From Enhydrobacter aerosaccus (GTDB taxonomy: Bacteria > Pseudomonadota > Alphaproteobacteria > Reyranellales > Reyranellaceae): 64,000 bases of DNA. The first letter of the stretch is position 1. Each line of letters begins with the position of its first letter. Of this stretch, positions 401 through 30,965 are shown in pieces. Under the pieces are notes generated by a model. The model did not search any database. It was not told the origin of the DNA and worked only from the letters and a program-made list of their open reading frames with translations. The stretch covers positions 1 to 64,000 of the forward strand of contig CAIKZO010000077.1 of assembly GCA_903832005.1 (NCBI GenBank), given 5' to 3'. The translations under genes and the position numbers were made by a program.

Positions 401-432
401 AATATCTAGATTCCATCACCGGAAATTTGGCT

Positions 433-1119
433 ATGCCCCGCATCCGAACCATTGACCCCCACTTTCCCCGAACCCCCAGCCTGTCGCGCGTCAGCCGCGA
501 GGCGCGGCTATTCTTCATCCTGCTCTGGACCCTCGCCGACGATTCCGGCCGCCTGCGGCTCGATCATGAGCGTCTGATCGACCAGCTCTATCCGTTCGAC
601 AGCGATGCGCCGTCGCTGCTGCCGGTCTGGATCGGTGAGCTGGAGTCTGCGCGTTGCATCGAGCTCTATCGTGTCGAGGACGTCGAGTATCTGCGCGTGC
701 GCAAATGGCGGCAGCTGCAGACCTGCATCCAGCGGCCGACCCGCAGCCGGCTGCCGGCGGCGCCTCATGAGGCTCATGAGCCTCATGAGGAATCGCCTCC
801 GATGCAGAAGCGGCGGGCATCGAAGGCCGATCCTCATGAGGAAGAGTTTTTTTTGGAGGGTGTCGAGCTGCCCGGCACGCCCGGAGAGTTCCCGCCCGAT
901 CGCGTGCGCCAGATCCTGGAGATCGCGCTTCGCCAGTCGATGGCGAACAAGAAAGGCCAGACCGCGACAGCGCGGTTCGTCGAACTGGCCGGTCGCACGG
1001 ATGGGACATGGGGCGGACGCGGGACGCCCAACGGCCGCAAGGAGCCCGCGGCCGACGCCGAGCGCAGCATCGGTCCCGCCGAGCTGATGGGGCTGCCGGC
1101 CCCGCGCGCCGGCCGATAG
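433..1119 (+). CDS. Phage replication-organizer-like DNA-binding protein
   Basis: A 228-residue protein. The N-terminal ~110 residues start MPRIRTIDPHF and continue SREARLFFILLWTLADDSGR and YLRVRKWRQLQ. This layout is typical of prophage proteins with a winged-helix, DnaT/replisome-organizer-like N-terminus. The rest is low-complexity: His/Glu-rich, basic and then acidic, ending in a Gly/Arg-rich tail. ATG 433 is preferred over TTG 427 because GGAAA at 421-425 is spaced correctly. The terminase gene follows after 9 bases, supporting a phage origin. The function is inferred from architecture, and the C-terminal half is not recognised. Confidence 0.55.
   Translation: MPRIRTIDPHFPRTPSLSRVSREARLFFILLWTLADDSGRLRLDHERLIDQLYPFDSDAPSLLPVWIGELESARCIELYRVEDVEYLRVRKWRQLQTCIQRPTRSRLPAAPHEAHEPHEESPPMQKRRASKADPHEEEFFLEGVELPGTPGEFPPDRVRQILEIALRQSMANKKGQTATARFVELAGRTDGTWGGRGTPNGRKEPAADAERSIGPAELMGLPAPRAGR
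761..841 (+). repeat. Short palindromic microrepeats CCTCATGAGG inside the phage-like gene
   Basis: Within the gene at 433 the self-complementary TCATGA core recurs four times: three nearly contiguous copies at 764-790 in CCTCATGAGG-type contexts and one at 832-841. They encode an imperfect PHE/AHE peptide repeat in the linker between the N-terminal domain and the tail. Slippage-type expansion is a simple explanation. Confidence 0.6.
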
Positions 1120-1128
1120 GGGCCGCGC

Positions 1129-2574
1129 ATGATGAACGTCAGCCGCGCGCAGCTTTCGGCGTGGGCAGCGTCGCCCGCGCTGTTCGTGCGCGAGATGTTC
1201 GGCGTCGTGCCCGATGCCTGGCAGGAGGAAGTGCTGGCGGCCTTCCCCAAGGCGCCGCGGCTCGCCATGAAGGCGTGCAAGGGGCCGGGCAAGACCGCGG
1301 TCGAGGCGTGGCTCGCCTGGAACTTCCTGGTCACGCGGCCCGAGCCCAAGATCGCCGCCACCTCGATCACCGCCGACAATCTGTTCGACAATCTCTGGGC
1401 CGAGATGGCCAAGTGGCAGCAGCGGTCGGCGTATCTGCGCGAGCACTTCAAGTGGACCAAGGATCGCATCGTCTGCAAGGCGCGCCCCGAGACCTGGTGG
1501 ATGTCGGCGCGCACCTGGAACCGCACCACCGACCGCACCCAGCAGGGCAACACGCTGGCCGGTCTCCATGCCGACCACATCCTCTTTCTTCTCGACGAGA
1601 GCGGCGGCATTCCGGACGCGGTGATGGCGACGGCGGAGGCCGCACTCGCCTCGTGCATCGAGGGCCATATCGTGCAGGCGGGCAATCCCACGCATCTCGA
1701 AGGTCCGCTCTATCGCGCCTGCACGTCGGAGCGCCGCCTGTGGCATGTCACCGAGATCACCGCCGATCCGGACGATGCGCGCCGCTCGTCGCGCGTGCGC
1801 GTCGAATGGGCGAAGGAGCAGATCGAGAAATACGGGCGCGACAATCCCTGGGTGCTGGTCAACGTGTTCGGCAAGTTCCCGCCAGGCTCGCTCAACACGC
1901 TGATCGGGCCGGACGAATGCCGCGCCGCCATGGAGCGGGTCTATCGGCCGGAGGATATCGAGCGCGCGCCGCGCGTGCTGGGCGTCGACGTGGCGCGCTT
2001 CGGCGACGATGCCTCGGTGATCTTCCCGCGCCAGGGGCTGGTGGCGCTGCCGCCGATCAAGATGCGCAACGCCGACGGGGTCCAGGGCGCGGGCGCCGTC
2101 GCACGCAAGGCCGCCGACTGGAAGGTGGACGCGATCTTCGTCGACGATACCGGTGGCTGGGGCGCGTCGTGGATCGATTGCCTGCGCACCTTGGGCCATG
2201 CGCCGATCGGCGTGGGCTTCGCGTCGCGGCCCAACGACCCGCGCTACGACAACAAGCGCACGGAGATGTATTTCGAGGCCGTGCAGTGGATCAAGAACGG
2301 TGGGGCGTTGCCGAATGTGCCGGAGCTGGTCGCGGCGCTGTCGCAGACGACTTATTCCTTTCGCGGCGATCGCCTGCTGCTCGAACCCAAGGAGCAGGTG
2401 AAGGCTCGGCTCGGCTATTCGCCCGACGATGCCGATGCGCTGGCGCTCACTTTCGCCCAGCCGGTGGCGGGCCGCGAGATCTTCGCCGACCGCACGATGC
2501 ACTACGACGCAATGCGCTCGCGTGGCCGCCGCTTCGCGCTCACCGAGTACGATCCGCTGGCGGAGGTTGATTGA
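1129..2574 (+). CDS. Phage terminase large subunit (TerL-like)
   Basis: A 481-residue packaging ATPase/nuclease. The ATPase half has a Walker A-like ACKGPGKTA (around residues 47-55) and a Walker B-like HILFLLDESGG (around 148-158). The C-terminal nuclease half contains GVDVARFGDD and IFVDDTGGWG, the acidic motifs of the RNase H-like fold. The length is normal for TerL. In phages it moves DNA into proheads and cuts it. No small terminase, portal, protease or capsid gene lies nearby, so packaging is unlikely from this locus alone. It is either a remnant or a domesticated copy. The frame is intact. Confidence 0.8.
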   Translation: MMNVSRAQLSAWAASPALFVREMFGVVPDAWQEEVLAAFPKAPRLAMKACKGPGKTAVEAWLAWNFLVTRPEPKIAATSITADNLFDNLWAEMAKWQQRSAYLREHFKWTKDRIVCKARPETWWMSARTWNRTTDRTQQGNTLAGLHADHILFLLDESGGIPDAVMATAEAALASCIEGHIVQAGNPTHLEGPLYRACTSERRLWHVTEITADPDDARRSSRVRVEWAKEQIEKYGRDNPWVLVNVFGKFPPGSLNTLIGPDECRAAMERVYRPEDIERAPRVLGVDVARFGDDASVIFPRQGLVALPPIKMRNADGVQGAGAVARKAADWKVDAIFVDDTGGWGASWIDCLRTLGHAPIGVGFASRPNDPRYDNKRTEMYFEAVQWIKNGGALPNVPELVAALSQTTYSFRGDRLLLEPKEQVKARLGYSPDDADALALTFAQPVAGREIFADRTMHYDAMRSRGRRFALTEYDPLAEVD

Positions 2575-2583
2575 TGAGCCCTT

Positions 2584-2676
2584 CGTCGTCCCGACCGAAG
2601 CGCCGTAGGCGCGCAGTGGAGGGACCTCTCTTCGTTGCGCGCGAAGACAGGCCCCTCGGCTTCGCTCGGGGCGACG
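2584..2676. repeat. Imperfect long inverted repeat (palindromic intergenic element)
   Basis: Arms CGTCGTCCCGACCGAAGC (2584-2601) and GCTTCGCTCGGGGCGACG (2659-2676) pair at 16 of 18 positions. An inner pair, GAGGGACCTCTCTTC against GAAGACAGGCCCCTC, also matches at 13 of 15. The ~93-base unit can fold into one long hairpin. It looks like a dispersed intergenic palindromic element. It separates the terminase gene from the giant gene and could end transcription. No T-run follows. Confidence 0.6.
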
Positions 2677-2823
2677 GGAATCGCGCGCTCCGTTCGTTAC
2701 CGCACGCACAAACGTTCGATGCGTCGTCGTGCGCAAACTTCTTTGGCGACAATTAATTTGCACTCATTGTATGAACACGACGCTTCCCGTCCCTCCGCCG
2801 CTGCCGAGACTCGAGGAAACCAG

Positions 2824-5800
2824 ATGTCCACGCGTGAAAAGCCTGTCTCCGGCACGGCACCGTCTCCGCAGCGCACGCCGCTCCCGGTCGACGTCCTGCG
2901 CAAGGTCGTGGGCGGTCGCGGCGACGACAAGAACGACCGTCCCGATCCGACGGTGCTGGTCGGCCAGAGCATCGCCGCCCATGACGCCAGCGCGGAGGCG
3001 GCCGCTCTTCAGGATGCGGACATCCCCGCGCCGATCAGCGCCGAAGAATTGGTTGAGGATCAGGGCGGCGACGATATCGGCGCGGAGATGGCCGACTTCG
3101 GCGGCACCTTGCCCGAGATGGCGGATTTCAGCGACGAGGCGGTGATGGCGCGGGTGGCCCTCATCGAGGCGCTGCCGGACGACGACATCGAAGAGAGGCT
3201 GAAGGCCGACGGCGACCCTGAGGAGGGCACCGTCTCCGAAGAAGAAGTGCGGTCGCTGGTCGACTACGTTGTCGCCGCGCCGTCCCCGCAAGGCTCGCTG
3301 GAAGCGGCTGACGCGTCGAAGGACGAGGTGTCGGTCGAGAAGGCGCCGGTCGAGTCCGGGGCGGCGAAGACCGGGGCGGAGACGGCCAAAGCGGCCGCGT
3401 CGCCGTCGGACACCGCGGACGAGGCGTCGTCCGACGGTGCCGAGACGATGCAGGACGACGCGATCGGCAAGATGATGCCGGCGAAGCTCGGCGCTCCCGC
3501 GGTCGTCGAGGCCAAGGCTGTGCCTGCCGATCCGGCCGTCGACACGCTGGTGTCGGAAGCGGCGACCAAGGGCACCGATAGCGGCTCGCAACAGACCGCG
3601 CCGGCGACCGAGACGTTGGTCACGCTTCCGGTCTCGAAGAACTATTACGAGCGCGAGCGCGAGCGGAACCAGCTCGGCACTGCCACGACCAAGCTGGTCA
3701 GCCCGCACGATTATCGTCCGACCGCCGAGGGCGTCGCGCAGGTGCACCAGGCGCAGGACGCCTTCGACGCCGCGCGCGGCCGGTCGATTGCCGCCAACAA
3801 GGACTGGGCCCAGAAGGTCGCGGACAAGCGTCCGGCGCCGGAAATTGCCGAGGCCGCGAAGGCCAAGGACCTGGCGGAAGCCGACTTCGCCAAGGCGACG
3901 ACCTTGCTGACGGGCAAGATGCTGCCGGCCGACTACAAGCCGCATCCGCGCACGGACATCCCCAGCCCCTGGCAGGTCGAGCAGATCGCCAAGACGGCCT
4001 ATCTGAAAGCCAAGGCGACGGGCAACGCCGAGCAGATCGCGGCGGCCAAGAAGGCCTACGACGCGGTCAAGCTGCCGGAGAGCAAGGCCGCCACGGTCGA
4101 CCTGATGACGGCCAAGCACAAGGCGGCCGGGACCAAAGTGACCGCGATCTCGATGAAGATCGCCAGCCTCGACAAGAATACCGACACCCTGGCCGAGAAG
4201 AAGGCCACGGCGCAGCCCAAGCTGGTCAAGGACCTGATCGAGTACAAGGCGTTCCTCGAGCGCAATCCGCACATGCGCGACCTGACCTATTACGCGCGCG
4301 AGAAGCTGAAGGACCGCACGCCCGCGCTGATGAAGACGTTCACCGAGTTCCGGGACGCGCGCACGGGCCTGCAGATGAACGCGGCCTTCCGGGCCGAGCT
4401 GGTCAAGGATCTGAACGCCGCCAGCAAGGACCTGGTGCGCACCGCGGCCTTCATCGACGTGGCCCAACAGTCCGACGGCGCGCCGGCGAAGGATCTCGCC
4501 GCCGCCGACGCCAGGATCAAGGACGCGGACGCCAAATGGCTGAAGGCCGGCGAGGGCCTCAAGTCGGCGGTGACGGACGACCAGGTCGCGTCCGACAATC
4601 GCAAGGCCGCGCTTGCCGAGTCGGAAAAGGCGCTGGGCACCCATAACGCCAAGACCGCCGAGTACCGCAAGCTCGACCCGGTCACCGACCAGCGCATCAA
4701 GGCGCTCGAAGCGCAGCAGGACGTCGTGATGAAGGGCGTGTACGGCAAGTTCCACAGCATCGACTACAGCGAATACAGGATGTCCGATGCGCAGATGCGC
4801 ATCAATTCGGCGAAGCAGCTGCTCGGCGACAAGGAACGCGAGCTGATTGCCGCGTTCCGGGGCATCCTGCCGTACGAGAAATGGGACAACACGATCTACG
4901 ACCTGGGCCGCAAGCGCGGCGGCACCACCGAGTGGTCGGTCGGCCAGTTCGACAACTTCGCCGGTGCGGTCAAGCATGCGGGCAAGGTGGCGGGCGAGTA
5001 CAGCGTGTACCAGAGATACATGGCGTTGGCGGTCAAGGATCTCGCCGAGCACAAGGGCATCCATGCGGGCCTGGTCGCGCAATACAATGATCTGGCGCGC
5101 ATGATCGGCTGGGCCAAGATGGGCGGCGAACAGGCCCTCAAGGTGGCGGAAAAGGCCCTGGGCGATTCGGAAAAGAGGCTCCAGGAATTCGGCACGACCT
5201 TCGTGAAGCTGGCCGAGCGTGCCGAGGCAACCCAAAAGGCCGTCGTGGCGGCGAAGCAGAAACTCGATACCACGAGCCTGCAACTGGCCAAGAACGAGGG
5301 GCGGCGGGGACCCCTGTTCGAAGCGCGCGTCGGGCAGATGCGGGTCGACGTCAACGAGGCCAAGGCGGCGCATTTCACCGCCACCCAGCTGGCCGACCAG
5401 GCGCAGGCCGACGTCGACAACTATCGCGGCTACAAGGGCAACGAGATGCCCAAGGCCAATGGGCCGACCCAGATCGAATCGCAGAAGAAGCAGCGGCTGG
5501 TCGATGCCTACGTCCAGGTCTCCAAATGGGCGACCGAGGACAAGGCACGGGCGGAGAGTGCCGACGCCAAAAAGGCCAGGCTGGAGAGCGTGGCCTCGTG
5601 GAACGCCTGGCAGGGCACCGTCGACAAGGCGAAGGCGGCCACGGTGCGCGAGGAGGCGACGACCAGGCGCGCCGCCGACGCGATCCTCGAGGTCAAGGCC
5701 GCGAGCTTCGCGCAGAAGCTGGCGGTGAGCGCCAAGCAGACGATCGAGATCCGCGCCTTCAACTTCCTCGACACGCAGAAGGCGGAGCTGCGCACCAAGG

Positions 5801-7290
5801 TGGCGACGGCGACGGGCGACGCCAAGAAGACGCTGCAGGCCCAGCTCGATCTCACCGAGCGGGCCGAGGCCCGGCTCGGCAAGTCGGTCACGACGCAATA
5901 CCAGGACGACGTGCCGGAAGCCGCCGGCACGGACGCGAAGCCCGCCGCTGGTCCCGCCGACAAGGCAGCGGCCGCGAAGGCCGAGGCGGAGGCCGCCAAG
6001 GCCAAGCCCGACACGAAGAAGGCGCTCGACGGGCTGCAGGCAACGACGAAGTTCACCGGTCCGGGCAAGCTCGAACCGGGCGCTAAGCTCGAGAAGAAGC
6101 CGGACGGCAAGTGGGAGTACAGCCCCGCCAAGAAGCCCGATCCGTCGGTCAGCAAGGCCGAACTGAACAAGAAGGCGAAGGACGCCGCCGTCGATGCGCT
6201 GGCGGAGAAGTTCGGAGCGAAGTCGGGCGAGCTCGCCAAGTCGCTCGCGGGCGACCTGGCGCAGGAGATCACGCGCCTTCATGCCGAGCGTTCGGGCAAG
6301 GTCCTGAAGGTGGCGTACGAAAAGGTCCTCGCGGGCGAGGTCGTGCGCAACGTGTCGGTCGACGGCCTGCGCACGGTCGACACCGTGGCCCAGGTCTCGG
6401 TCAAGGCGCAGGCCGCTGCCTATCTCAGCAATCTCGGCGCCTATGGCACGGCCGAGTTCGGCCTCAAGGCCGAGGCGGGCGCGGCCGGCGCCGGCAAGGC
6501 CACCATCGCGGGCGAGCTCACGGTCGGCGGCAGCGGCAAGGTCTACGCCGCGGGCGGCGTCGACGTGGTCGCCACCGGCGCGGTCAATGCGCTGGGCCTC
6601 TCGGCCGAGATCGTGGCCAAGGCGCATGCGCGCGGCGAGGTCGAAGGCCTGGCGGGCTTCGGCATCGGCGAGCATGTCGAGATGATGCAGGGCGGCAAGG
6701 CGGGCGTCGAGGCGCTGGCCAGCGCCAGCGCCGGCGGCAAGCTCGGCATGGACGGCGCGTCGGTCAAGCTCAGCGCCTCGGCCGAGGCTTCCGCCCGCGC
6801 CGCTTACGTGCAGAACGCCAAGCTCGGCGACCTGAACGTCAAGGGCAACATCGAGGTGTGGGCCAAGGCGCGCGCCGAGGCGGTCGCCAACTTCTCGGCC
6901 GGCATGGTCAAGGGCAACATCGAGCTCAGCGGCAAGATCGGCGCCTCGGCCGGCGCGGGCGTGGGCGTCCAGGCCACGAAGAAGCTCAGCCTGTTCGGCA
7001 TGGAGCTGGAAGTCACCGGTGGCGTCAGCGCCGGCAAGCTGGGCGCCAATGTCGCGGTCGATGTTGGCTACAAGAACGGCGTGTTGCGCTGGAGCGTCGA
7101 TGTCGGCGCGGCGCTCGGCATCGGCATCAACCTGAAGCTGAGCGGCTCGATCGATTTCGTCGAGGTGATCAAGGCGGCCTCCAACTTGCTCGCAAGCATC
7201 TTCCAAGCGACGGCCCCGGAGTTCTCCAACTTCATCAGGCTCGAGGCGTTGAAGTTCTCGGCCCGCAACGGTGGAGATGTGTTCAAGTGA
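2824..7290 (+). CDS. Giant Ala/Lys/Gly-rich protein of unknown function (1488 aa)
   Basis: Not recognised. ATG 2824 is chosen because GAGGAAAC lies just before it; in-frame TTG codons further upstream fall in the palindromic element. Approximate layout: residues 1-270 acidic and Ala/Ser/Pro-rich; 270-1030 long Lys/Ala/Glu-rich helical, probably coiled-coil stretches; 1040-1110 an Ala/Pro/Lys linker; 1170-1440 Gly/Ala-rich alternating small-residue repeats (for example KGNIELSGKIGASAGAGVGV); then a final ~45-residue helix. There is no signal peptide, Cys pair or catalytic motif that I can name. The Gly/Ala segment recalls repeats seen in some large secreted or contractile-injection cargo proteins, but this is only a resemblance. 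It is translationally coupled to the next gene. Confidence 0.7.
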   Translation: MSTREKPVSGTAPSPQRTPLPVDVLRKVVGGRGDDKNDRPDPTVLVGQSIAAHDASAEAAALQDADIPAPISAEELVEDQGGDDIGAEMADFGGTLPEMADFSDEAVMARVALIEALPDDDIEERLKADGDPEEGTVSEEEVRSLVDYVVAAPSPQGSLEAADASKDEVSVEKAPVESGAAKTGAETAKAAASPSDTADEASSDGAETMQDDAIGKMMPAKLGAPAVVEAKAVPADPAVDTLVSEAATKGTDSGSQQTAPATETLVTLPVSKNYYERERERNQLGTATTKLVSPHDYRPTAEGVAQVHQAQDAFDAARGRSIAANKDWAQKVADKRPAPEIAEAAKAKDLAEADFAKATTLLTGKMLPADYKPHPRTDIPSPWQVEQIAKTAYLKAKATGNAEQIAAAKKAYDAVKLPESKAATVDLMTAKHKAAGTKVTAISMKIASLDKNTDTLAEKKATAQPKLVKDLIEYKAFLERNPHMRDLTYYAREKLKDRTPALMKTFTEFRDARTGLQMNAAFRAELVKDLNAASKDLVRTAAFIDVAQQSDGAPAKDLAAADARIKDADAKWLKAGEGLKSAVTDDQVASDNRKAALAESEKALGTHNAKTAEYRKLDPVTDQRIKALEAQQDVVMKGVYGKFHSIDYSEYRMSDAQMRINSAKQLLGDKERELIAAFRGILPYEKWDNTIYDLGRKRGGTTEWSVGQFDNFAGAVKHAGKVAGEYSVYQRYMALAVKDLAEHKGIHAGLVAQYNDLARMIGWAKMGGEQALKVAEKALGDSEKRLQEFGTTFVKLAERAEATQKAVVAAKQKLDTTSLQLAKNEGRRGPLFEARVGQMRVDVNEAKAAHFTATQLADQAQADVDNYRGYKGNEMPKANGPTQIESQKKQRLVDAYVQVSKWATEDKARAESADAKKARLESVASWNAWQGTVDKAKAATVREEATTRRAADAILEVKAASFAQKLAVSAKQTIEIRAFNFLDTQKAELRTKVATATGDAKKTLQAQLDLTERAEARLGKSVTTQYQDDVPEAAGTDAKPAAGPADKAAAAKAEAEAAKAKPDTKKALDGLQATTKFTGPGKLEPGAKLEKKPDGKWEYSPAKKPDPSVSKAELNKKAKDAAVDALAEKFGAKSGELAKSLAGDLAQEITRLHAERSGKVLKVAYEKVLAGEVVRNVSVDGLRTVDTVAQVSVKAQAAAYLSNLGAYGTAEFGLKAEAGAAGAGKATIAGELTVGGSGKVYAAGGVDVVATGAVNALGLSAEIVAKAHARGEVEGLAGFGIGEHVEMMQGGKAGVEALASASAGGKLGMDGASVKLSASAEASARAAYVQNAKLGDLNVKGNIEVWAKARAEAVANFSAGMVKGNIELSGKIGASAGAGVGVQATKKLSLFGMELEVTGGVSAGKLGANVAVDVGYKNGVLRWSVDVGAALGIGINLKLSGSIDFVEVIKAASNLLASIFQATAPEFSNFIRLEALKFSARNGGDVFK

Positions 7291-7835
7291 CAGGCATGGA
7301 CGACACCGCGGAACAGCTGCGCCGCAAGCTGGAGACCGAGCTGCCGCCGGCGCTGGCGGAGTTCGGCCGGCAGGCCCGGTCGACAATCACGCAACTGGCC
7401 GGGGCCGACGGCTGGTCGGAGGACCAGGCGGCGTGGCTCGCCGAGCGTGCGCTGGTGACGATGGTCGAGGATCTCGCGGCCGGCGTGCCGCCCGAGCAGG
7501 CGCTGGCCGACGGCTACAAGAAAGCCTGCCAGGCGCTGTCGCGGGAAGTGTTCGACGGCGCCCTGGCGCGCGGCGCCGAGCGCGACGTGGCCTTCCTGCT
7601 GTTGATCGAGCTCGAGAAGGAAATGGCCGCCCGCCGCGGCGAGGCGCCGCCGCCTTATTCGACGGCGCTGCAGATGGCCGGCTGTCAGGCCGTCGCTTCC
7701 GCCGCCGCGGAGGGGGCTTCGAGCGCCGACCAGATCGAAACCGGCTTCGCGATGATGCGCCAGCTCGCGCGGGAGTTCGGCGACGGTGAAGGTGAGGGCG
7801 AAGACGTCAGCCCAGCTGCTCATCCATCAGCTTGA
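7287..7835 (+). CDS. Small helical protein coupled to the giant gene (182 aa)
   Basis: GTG 7287 overlaps the giant gene's stop (GTGA), with GGAG at 7272-7275 upstream; ATG 7296 is an alternative start. The protein is mostly amphipathic helix, begins MDDTAEQLRRKLETELPP after the alternative start, and ends in an acidic Gly/Glu tail. No family is recognised. The 4-base overlap implies production together with the giant protein, so it may be its chaperone, adaptor or immunity partner; this is inference only. Its 3' end overlaps the convergent cinA-like gene by 29 bases. Confidence 0.6.
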   Translation: MTGMDDTAEQLRRKLETELPPALAEFGRQARSTITQLAGADGWSEDQAAWLAERALVTMVEDLAAGVPPEQALADGYKKACQALSREVFDGALARGAERDVAFLLLIELEKEMAARRGEAPPPYSTALQMAGCQAVASAAAEGASSADQIETGFAMMRQLAREFGDGEGEGEDVSPAAHPSA

Positions 7836-28829: not shown

Positions 28830-30965
28830 CTAGAACGACCAGACGCCGCGGATCACGCCCGACCAGATATCGAGGCCGTTGACGCCGATCGAGTCGTAGC
28901 TGCCCTGAACCCGGAGCGAGAAGCCTTTCTGGCTGCGGATCGACACGCCGGCGCCCAGCGAGCCCGAACCGTTCGTGCCCGGGCGCACCACGATCGGCAC
29001 ACCGGCCGAGGAGGTCGAGATCGTGGCCGAAGCGAAGTCGATCGCGCCCTTCAGGCTGACGAACGGCTCGACCGCCACGCCCGGCTCGACGTTATAGAAC
29101 GTGTAGCCGATCTCGGGACCGGCCTCGATGCGGCCGTAGCTGACGACCTGTCCCGGAACGACATTGCCCGCCGAATCGGTGTAGCCCGTCTGCGTCTCGT
29201 TGCCGTAGCTGCCCGAGAGTGTGGGAGAGAAGCGCCACGGACCGTCGTGCCAGGTACCGGCGATCGAGCCGCCGGTCATGAAGCGTAGTCCGTTGAACCC
29301 GCCGGTCGTGCCGGGGACCGGACTGGTGTTGTAGGCTAGGGTCGAGACGCCGACGAAGGCCGAGGCGATCAGGTTGTCGTCGATCTTGAAGCCGATGTAG
29401 GGCAGCGCCGAGAAGCCCAGCATGGTCATGCGGGCGCCCTGGTTGCCCGAGCGGTTGTCGAAGGACTCGATGCTGAAGCTCATGCCGAGCGTCAGCCGCG
29501 GCAACACCTTGTAGTCGGCGCCCGCCGCGCCGACGATGCCGGAGGAGTTCGACACGGTGAGCGTGTCGTTCACCGCGGTCGCGCGGCCTTCCATCCAGAC
29601 GTTCCACTTCTGGCCGAAATCCTCGCAGAAGGAATCGCAGACGCCGGCGAGCTGCCTGGCATTGAGATGGAGTGCGGGTGCGGCTGCGGCGGGCGCGATC
29701 GCTTCCGCGATCGGTCCGTCCCATATCGCCACGACAGGCGCTGTCTGCCGTTCTGCAGGAGGTTGGGCGATCTTGGCTTCGAGTTCCGCGTAGGCGAGTT
29801 CCTGGCGGCTCGCGGCCAGACTGAGTTCGGTGGTGCGGACGCGCCCGTCGGTCGGGCCGACGCCGTCCTCGCGCAGGTCGGCAGCCTGGATTTCGAGGTC
29901 GTGCACCCTGCGGGTGAGCGTGGCGACGCGAGTCGAACTCTCCCGCTCGATCGAGGTGCGCGGCGGAGGAGGGGCTGCTGGCGCTGCCGGTGGCGCGGTG
30001 TCTGGCACGGGCTGCGGAGCGGCGGGCGGCGTCGGCGCTGTGGGTGCAGTCGGTGGCGCCATGTCCGGCACGGGTGGCGGCGGCGAGGCAGGCGGTCTCG
30101 GTGCTGTGGGTGCAGTCGGTGCTGCCATGTCGGGCACGGGCGGCGGCGGCGAGGCCGGCGGTCGCGGTGCTGTGGGTGCAGTCGGTGCCGCCATGTCGGG
30201 CACGGGCGGCGGCGGCGAGGCCGGCGGCCTCGGTGCTGCGGGTGCAGTTGGTGCTGCCAAGTTGGGCACAGGTGGCGGGGGTGTAGTCGGCGGTCTCGGT
30301 GCTGACGGCGGCGTCGGCGGTGCCATGTCAGCTACAGGCGGCGGTGGCGCGGTTGGCGGCCTCGGCGCCGCTGGCGGCGTCGGTGGTGCCATGTCGGCAT
30401 TGACGCCGAAGCTCGAGCCGACGGCGGTCGCGGCGAAGCCCACGAGGCTCCTCATGGTCGCCTGGCCCATCGTGGTGGCTTGCTGCGCGTTGTTGGCGCT
30501 CTGGATGGCGGGCGACGCCCGATTGACCGGCGTCGCGGCCGCGCCGGCGACCGAGCAGGTCACCGACACGGTCGGCACCGCAATGCTCGACCGGTTGTAT
30601 CCGTAACTCACGGCGCCGGTTCCGGCCGCACTGAGCGTTTGTGTGACCGCGCCCGATGTCGTGGCGAGCGATATGCCTGCGCCCTGGAGACTGAGCTGGC
30701 TCACCGTGCCGCCGGCGACGGGACCGAAGGTGATGGTGTCGCCGGCGTCGAAGGTGAGATTGCCGATCAGCTTCACGCTCGGCGTCAGGACCGGGCCGTT
30801 CAGGGAGATGGTCCCCAAGTTCGCCAAGGTCGTGCAGCCCGTCGAGGCGAATGCCGGGTCGCCGCCGCTTGTCAGCGCCGCCAAGCCCGCAAGCGGTGCA
30901 ATCAACCCAGAGAATCGCAGAGCATAGTGGCGCGCGAACGCCACGGCCGACCGTGCGCGAAGCAT
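28830..30965 (-). CDS. Autotransporter with proline-rich repeat stalk
   Basis: 711 residues in three parts. Residues 1-~185 hold a leader (ending around DPAFA near residue 40) and a beta-rich passenger segment. Residues 191-~335 are six to seven 22-residue Pro-rich repeats (DMAAPTAPTAPRPPASPPPP type). A short coiled coil (RVATLTRRVHDLEIQAADLR) leads to a C-terminal ~260-residue autotransporter beta-barrel ending in GVIRGVWSF with the terminal aromatic residue needed for outer-membrane insertion. It probably displays a small passenger on a stiff Pro stalk. It is divergent from a regulator gene. Confidence 0.85.
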   Translation of the reverse strand: MLRARSAVAFARHYALRFSGLIAPLAGLAALTSGGDPAFASTGCTTLANLGTISLNGPVLTPSVKLIGNLTFDAGDTITFGPVAGGTVSQLSLQGAGISLATTSGAVTQTLSAAGTGAVSYGYNRSSIAVPTVSVTCSVAGAAATPVNRASPAIQSANNAQQATTMGQATMRSLVGFAATAVGSSFGVNADMAPPTPPAAPRPPTAPPPPVADMAPPTPPSAPRPPTTPPPPVPNLAAPTAPAAPRPPASPPPPVPDMAAPTAPTAPRPPASPPPPVPDMAAPTAPTAPRPPASPPPPVPDMAPPTAPTAPTPPAAPQPVPDTAPPAAPAAPPPPRTSIERESSTRVATLTRRVHDLEIQAADLREDGVGPTDGRVRTTELSLAASRQELAYAELEAKIAQPPAERQTAPVVAIWDGPIAEAIAPAAAAPALHLNARQLAGVCDSFCEDFGQKWNVWMEGRATAVNDTLTVSNSSGIVGAAGADYKVLPRLTLGMSFSIESFDNRSGNQGARMTMLGFSALPYIGFKIDDNLIASAFVGVSTLAYNTSPVPGTTGGFNGLRFMTGGSIAGTWHDGPWRFSPTLSGSYGNETQTGYTDSAGNVVPGQVVSYGRIEAGPEIGYTFYNVEPGVAVEPFVSLKGAIDFASATISTSSAGVPIVVRPGTNGSGSLGAGVSIRSQKGFSLRVQGSYDSIGVNGLDIWSGVIRGVWSF
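29960..30395 (-). repeat. 66-bp tandem repeats encoding a Pro-rich stalk
   Basis: Six to seven head-to-tail units of 66 bp (22 codons) inside the autotransporter gene. Units 4 and 5 are identical at protein level; outer units diverge (DMAPPTPP versus DMAAPTAP) and the last is shortened to 21 codons then degenerates. The copy number is likely to vary between strains. Confidence 0.8.

What the first reader, a model, noticed from the sequence alone, without database searches (positions are those of the whole stretch)
2824..7835. Giant low-complexity protein with a translationally coupled small partner behind a lone phage terminase
A 1488-residue protein with an acidic head, ~750 residues of Lys/Ala helical sequence and a ~270-residue Gly/Ala repeat segment, coupled by GTGA to a 182-residue helical protein. 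I recognise neither. The upstream genes are phage-derived, and the usual portal and capsid genes are absent. Possible readings include a secreted or injected cargo with its chaperone, or a prophage morphogenesis protein repurposed by the host. This is the strongest candidate for an undescribed two-gene system here.
Basis: partly seen in the sequence, partly recalled or inferred. Interest (0 to 1): 0.75.

Follow-up and report, generated by a model that had tools for sequence, protein, structure and literature searches.

The report
Giant double-glycine-leader secreted protein with partner
An alphaproteobacterium carries a 157-kDa protein bearing the cut-off export tag normally found on tiny bacteriocins, next to a small acidic helper; relatives keep such pairs beside a matching peptidase-exporter, so this is probably a giant cargo of a machine thought to export only small peptides.

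Summary
The two genes are real but are not phage morphogenesis genes. The 1488-aa protein (2824-7290) starts with a double-glycine leader (L20-x4-L25-x2-V28-x-G30-G31), the signal read by C39-peptidase ABC exporters. Homologues in the same genus (G281, G284; more distantly G267, G282) and a similar locus outside it (G430) lie beside NHLM-type exporter genes. In the genus, the HlyDs of these loci form one clade (100/96), apart from those of NHLM loci without giants. The exporter's C39 catalytic residues are intact. The giant is Cys-free, with an acidic head, a ~770-aa coiled-coil-like region and a ~266-aa Ala/Gly beta-like region. The small partner is acidic, all-helical, 16-19 kDa, and follows the giant in four of five exporter loci. 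Best reading: a giant type I secretion substrate with a cytosolic export chaperone. Secretion is strongly inferred; the chaperone role is a guess, preferred over immunity. A 2021 review gives active-C39 exporters a ~10 kDa cargo limit; this cargo is ~157 kDa. Caveat: the window's own assembly (90% complete) holds no exporter of the matching clade. The phage genes merely share a variable site downstream of cinA.

The parts
2824..7290 (+). giant Cys-free protein, 1488 aa, 157 kDa precursor: putative double-glycine-leader type I secretion substrate
2824..2916 (+). double-glycine leader, aa 1-31; predicted C39 cleavage after Gly31
   Evidence: strict pattern L....L..[VIM].GG in window, G281 and G430 N-termini, 0 of 236 control genes; consensus from PMC6959990
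2917..3633 (+). acidic head, aa 32-270, pI 4.05
3634..5943 (+). Lys/Ala helical, coiled-coil-like region, aa 271-1040, heptad-like period 3.51
   Evidence: 0 of 300 shuffles
6364..7161 (+). Ala/Gly-rich beta-like region, aa 1181-1446, inside the best conserved part (53% over aa 1110-1487 with G281)
7296..7835 (+). small acidic all-helical partner, 179 aa from the conserved ATG (182 aa if GTG 7287 is used), pI 4.40
427..1119 (+). phage replication-initiation-like protein; co-resident of the island, probably not part of the system
   Evidence: phrog_2149, 2.8e-19
1129..2574 (+). phage terminase large subunit; co-resident, probably not part of the system
   Evidence: phrog_2, 7e-25; 58% identity to Xanthomonas phage terminase

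Best explanation
The pair is the cargo half of a peptidase-containing (C39/NHLM-type) type I secretion system. The giant is made in the cytosol with an N-terminal double-glycine leader; the C39 domain of an ABC exporter docks the leader through L(-12), L(-7) and V(-4), cuts after Gly31, and the ~153 kDa Cys-free chain is threaded through the ABC exporter, NHLM HlyD and a TolC-like channel to the outside, where it would form a long coiled-coil-like stalk ending in an Ala/Gly beta-rich domain. The small acidic helical protein made right after it most likely stays in the cytosol as a dedicated chaperone or export adaptor. Shown here: leader motif, homologue neighbourhoods, exporter clade, intact C39 residues, partner conservation and physical properties. 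Inferred: secretion itself, the cleavage, the chaperone role, and the outside function (adhesion or contact-dependent antagonism). Not shown: which exporter serves the window copy.
For: Homologous loci in G281, G284, G267, G282 and G430 lie directly beside NHLM exporter genes: TIGR03794 HlyD above cutoff in G281, G267, G284 and G282, with TIGR03796/TIGR03797 the best families of the ABC genes scanned in G281, G267, G284 and G430. The giant-associated HlyDs form one clade, 100/96, one change, 0 of 500 shuffles. Leader motif in all five other-than-truncated N-termini, strict form in three, 0 of 236 control genes. C39 Cys, His and Asp align with LahT 6MPZ and PCAT1. Zero Cys in 1488 + 1542 aa, P about 1e-11 from local gene composition. 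Partner in four exporter loci plus the window, all pI 4.35-4.56, 16-19 kDa, no TM segment. All four genus genomes with the partner are among the 15 of 65 with NHLM HlyD (chance 0.002 by my calculation).
Against: No exporter of the giant clade was found in the window's assembly; its two NHLM HlyDs (contig C19) belong to another clade and the neighbouring C39-ABC is truncated. The assembly is 90% complete, so this is inconclusive. The ABC genes score below the curated cutoffs of TIGR03796 and TIGR03797. G284 has a giant and exporter but no recognisable partner, so the partner is not always needed. The G430 giant is related by layout and partner, not by detectable sequence to the window giant. 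No experiment exists.
Confidence: 0.7

Rival explanations
1. Same secretion route, but the giant is an antibacterial, surface-retained contact toxin and the small protein is its cytosolic immunity protein (like Cdz in principle).
For: GG leader and NHLM exporter are typical of bacteriocin systems; Cdz shows surface-retained Gly-rich bacteriocins in an alphaproteobacterium (PMC5380434); the partner gene is in an immunity-like position.
Against: Partner is recognisable beside giants whose bodies are unrelated in sequence, the opposite of toxin-specific immunity; it has no TM segment whereas CdzI is a membrane protein; the G284 giant has none.
Confidence: 0.15
2. The window copy is a stranded cargo gene: it lost its exporter when phage or other DNA entered the site, and is no longer secreted.
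For: Exporter of the right clade not found in the genome; terminase occupies the place where G281 has HlyD; variable site.
Against: Both reading frames are intact, and small gene and C-domain differ from G281 mostly at third positions with dN/dS about 0.5; assembly only 90% complete.
Confidence: 0.2
3. A prophage structural or injected protein repurposed by the host.
For: Phage replication-initiation and terminase genes immediately upstream.
Against: No phage-family match to the giant, no relatives in phage or viral collections; homologues lie with exporters.
Confidence: 0.03

Closest known systems
NHLM/PCAT export systems of Nif11- or nitrile-hydratase-type leader peptides (TIGR03794/03796/03797; PMC2887384)
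   Same: Exporter genes of the same families, HlyD above cutoff, GG leader pattern, intact C39 residues
   Different: Cargo is ~380-1540 aa rather than a small peptide; no NHLP/Nif11 leader domain; an extra small acidic partner; separate HlyD clade
Caulobacter Cdz system (CdzC/CdzD, PMC5380434)
   Same: Alphaproteobacterial type I cargo, Gly/Ala-rich, possibly surface-retained
   Different: CdzC/D are 84-86 aa; the immunity protein has three TM segments; the window giant is 1488 aa and its partner is soluble
RTX/LapA-type giant type I proteins with C39-like (inactive) or no C39 domain
   Same: Very large, Cys-free cargo (comparison from general knowledge)
   Different: Those carry C-terminal uncleaved signals and Ca-binding repeats; here an N-terminal GG leader, exporters with intact C39 residues and no RTX match
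SecB-dependent HasA type I secretion (PMC11026475)
   Same: A cytosolic chaperone assists a type I cargo
   Different: SecB is a general chaperone; here a dedicated partner encoded next to the cargo is proposed, untested

Membership tests
C39/PCAT (NHLM) type I secretion cargo | N-terminal double-glycine leader L(-12)..L(-7)..GG | tested here: met
   consensus in PMC6959990
C39/PCAT (NHLM) type I secretion cargo | encoded with a C39-ABC exporter and HlyD | tested here: inconclusive
   met for loci in G284, G267, G282; ABC2 and HlyD only in G281 and ABC genes only in G430, where contigs end; for the window copy no cognate exporter found in a 90% complete assembly
C39/PCAT (NHLM) type I secretion cargo | exporter C39 catalytic Cys/His/Asp present | tested here: met
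   G267 exporter against 6MPZ and PCAT1; G284 and G282 by eye
NHLM equivalogs TIGR03796/TIGR03797 | score above curated cutoff | tested here: not met
   694.6 vs 853.3, 555.1 vs 853.3, 506.9 vs 709.4, 627.3 vs 709.4; HlyD TIGR03794 is met
NHLP / Nif11-type precursor peptides | TIGR03793/TIGR03798 leader domain | tested here: not met
   no such NCBIfam match to N-termini or whole proteins
RTX proteins | Ca-binding nonapeptide repeats | tested here: not met
   no Pfam match at E<=1 for P0001 or G281 giant
Cdz bacteriocins | two small (<90 aa) glycine-zipper proteins plus membrane immunity protein | tested here: not met
   sizes and hydropathy; definition from PMC5380434
Phage morphogenesis proteins | match to a phage structural family or phage-borne homologues | tested here: not met
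Dedicated secretion chaperones | binds the cargo and keeps it export-competent | not testable with these tools
   only size, pI, helicity and position were tested

The most novel reading that the evidence does not exclude
A separate branch of active-C39 type I secretion that exports whole ~40-157 kDa proteins through N-terminal double-glycine leader cleavage, usually with a dedicated cytosolic chaperone, breaking the proposed ~10 kDa cargo limit for active C39 exporters.
Probability: 0.5. Interest if true: 0.75.

Novelty: new variant of a known kind. Interest (0 to 1): 0.6.

Why it matters
A 2021 review holds that exporters with an active C39 peptidase appear to carry only small cargo, up to about 10 kDa, while large cargo goes with inactive C39-like domains and C-terminal signals (PMC8277102). 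A set of giant GG-leader proteins beside exporters with intact C39 residues, plus a small partner, would break that rule and make it testable whether leader cleavage can start export of a 150-kDa chain and whether type I secretion can use dedicated chaperones.

Tried and rejected
Whole-protein searches with the giant found nothing; only the C-terminal segment found homologues. Weak hits to hydantoinase-B-like genes (G004, G019, G274, G013, G278, G276, G003, G011) and of the partner to antisense, TetR-like or SMC-like frames (G241, G041, G181, G734) were rejected as chance. AlphaFold of the C-terminal segment failed (pLDDT 34), so nothing is claimed about its fold. The partner model is good, but Foldseek and VIA-align gave only common helical arrangements (best E 0.34; best Z 7.0 over 50 residues), and profile hits to designed helical repeats were taken as helix composition. 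NCBIfam, Pfam and PADLOC gave no family for either protein. A dN/dS run on the helical region failed from a frame slip and was dropped.

Full report
What is there. The 1488-codon gene at 2824-7290 and the small gene behind it are intact. The giant divides into a leader (aa 1-31), an acidic head (32-270, pI 4.05), a Lys/Ala helical region (271-1040) with a heptad-like hydrophobic period of 3.51 that none of 300 shuffles reach, a short linker, and an Ala/Gly-rich region (about 1181-1446) with a local period near 2, typical of strands, that none of 500 shuffles reach. It has no cysteine. The small protein is predicted as six helices with mean pLDDT 87. No Pfam, NCBIfam, PADLOC or PDB family fits either protein; PHROGs gives only a weak hit of unknown function to the partner (E 0.039).

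How homologues were found. Whole-protein searches missed everything. The C-terminal 306 residues alone found a homologue in G281 of the same genus (E 5e-94, 58% identity over this segment) and weaker ones in G284 and G267. G281 matches the MAG contig JAFEFH010000001, isolate SZAS LIN-13. Over aa 1110-1487 the window and G281 giants are 53% identical; aa 17-938 align at about 26%. A profile of the small partner (window, G281, G267) then found G282 and, outside the genus, G430 (E 4.6e-8). Wider draws found no further convincing member. The family is therefore rare in what is sampled.

The neighbourhood. In G281 the order is ABC2, HlyD, giant, small partner. In G267 it is giant, small, C39-ABC, ABC2, HlyD; in G282 giant, small, C39-ABC, ABC2, HlyD; in G284 HlyD, giant, C39-ABC, ABC2 with no recognisable partner; in G430 two exporter ABC genes, a 382-aa GG-leader protein, then the partner. 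NCBIfam calls the HlyDs TIGR03794 above cutoff; TIGR03796 and TIGR03797 are the best families of the ABC genes scanned but stay below their cutoffs. NHLM HlyD genes occur in 15 of 65 genus genomes. All four genus genomes with the partner are among them; by chance that has probability 0.002 (my calculation). I fetched 20 other NHLM loci of the genus: none holds a homologue of the giants or the partner, and several have small Nif11-like leader peptides by eye. A maximum-likelihood tree of 26 HlyDs puts the four giant-associated ones in one clade, support 100/96. The two HlyDs of the window's own genome, on contig C19, group instead with G284:C159.

The leader. The five N-termini that can be read (window, G281, G284, G282, G430; G267 is cut by its contig end) carry L/V at -12, L/A at -7, a hydrophobic residue at -4 and GG or AG at -2,-1. 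The strict pattern L....L..[VIM].GG is in the window, G281 and G430 and in none of 236 control genes; shuffled N-termini match in 0.005-0.035% of draws. L(-12), L(-7), position -4 and GG are the positions shown by structure to matter in PCAT1 and LahT (PMC6959990). The C39 Cys, His and Asp of the G267 exporter align with those of 6MPZ and PCAT1, so it should be an active peptidase, not a C39-like domain.

The partner. All five are 156-180 aa, pI 4.35-4.56, without a TM segment. They lie from 5 to about 43 nt after the giant's stop. The window's GTG overlapping the stop is not conserved; ATG 7296 is. Size, charge and position recall dedicated secretion chaperones (general knowledge, not tested here). 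The partner is recognisable next to giants of unrelated body sequence, which argues for a role with the exporter or leader more than for toxin-specific immunity. This step is inference.

The site. cinA, the DOPA-dioxygenase-like gene and the acyl-CoA dehydrogenase are adjacent in the window and in the relatives read. Beyond cinA many relatives have a small membrane protein and an SDR gene; G023 and G024 have toxin-antitoxin-like pairs, and the window has the giant pair and the phage genes. So the pair sits at a variable site, and the terminase (58% identical to Xanthomonas phage terminases) is best read as another resident.

Limits. The window is the start of a contig of a 90% complete assembly, and no exporter of the right clade was found in that genome; tblastn to this contig finds only general ABC ATPases. 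Whether this copy is secreted is therefore open. Function after secretion (adhesin, matrix, antagonist) is not decided by any evidence here.

Novelty. The parts are of a known kind (C39/NHLM type I secretion); the size of the cargo, the separate exporter clade and the partner make it a new variant. A 2021 review states that active-C39 exporters appear to carry cargo up to about 10 kDa (PMC8277102). Searches of the open literature turned up no description of such giants, within that library's limits.

Noticed in passing
G000:C19 = L026:1-4835: The window genome's only NHLM HlyDs: two tandem HlyD genes and a C39-ABC that breaks off near the contig end, where the sequence looks like the start of an IS3-type transposase gene; a terminase-like fragment sits at the other end.
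   Followed up: partly
L018:500-1702 (-), L035:17452-18516 (+): Both G267 and G282 exporter loci end with a gene that looks like a formylglycine-generating-enzyme-type protein; its role with the giant is unknown.
   Followed up: no
L084:2801-3429 (+), L094:796-1424 (-): The site downstream of cinA is variable in the genus: PIN-domain-like toxin-antitoxin pairs occupy it in G023 and G024.
   Followed up: partly
L066, L076, L079, L081: Other NHLM loci in the genus carry short Nif11-like leader peptides beside the exporter: probable unexplored small peptide systems.
   Followed up: no
window 2575-2823: The gap between terminase and giant has a GC-rich repeat-like stretch; possible recombination boundary of the island.
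   Followed up: no
window 28830-30965 (-): A 711-aa ORF with a signal-peptide-like start in the most GC-rich part of the window; possibly an autotransporter, not examined.
   Followed up: no
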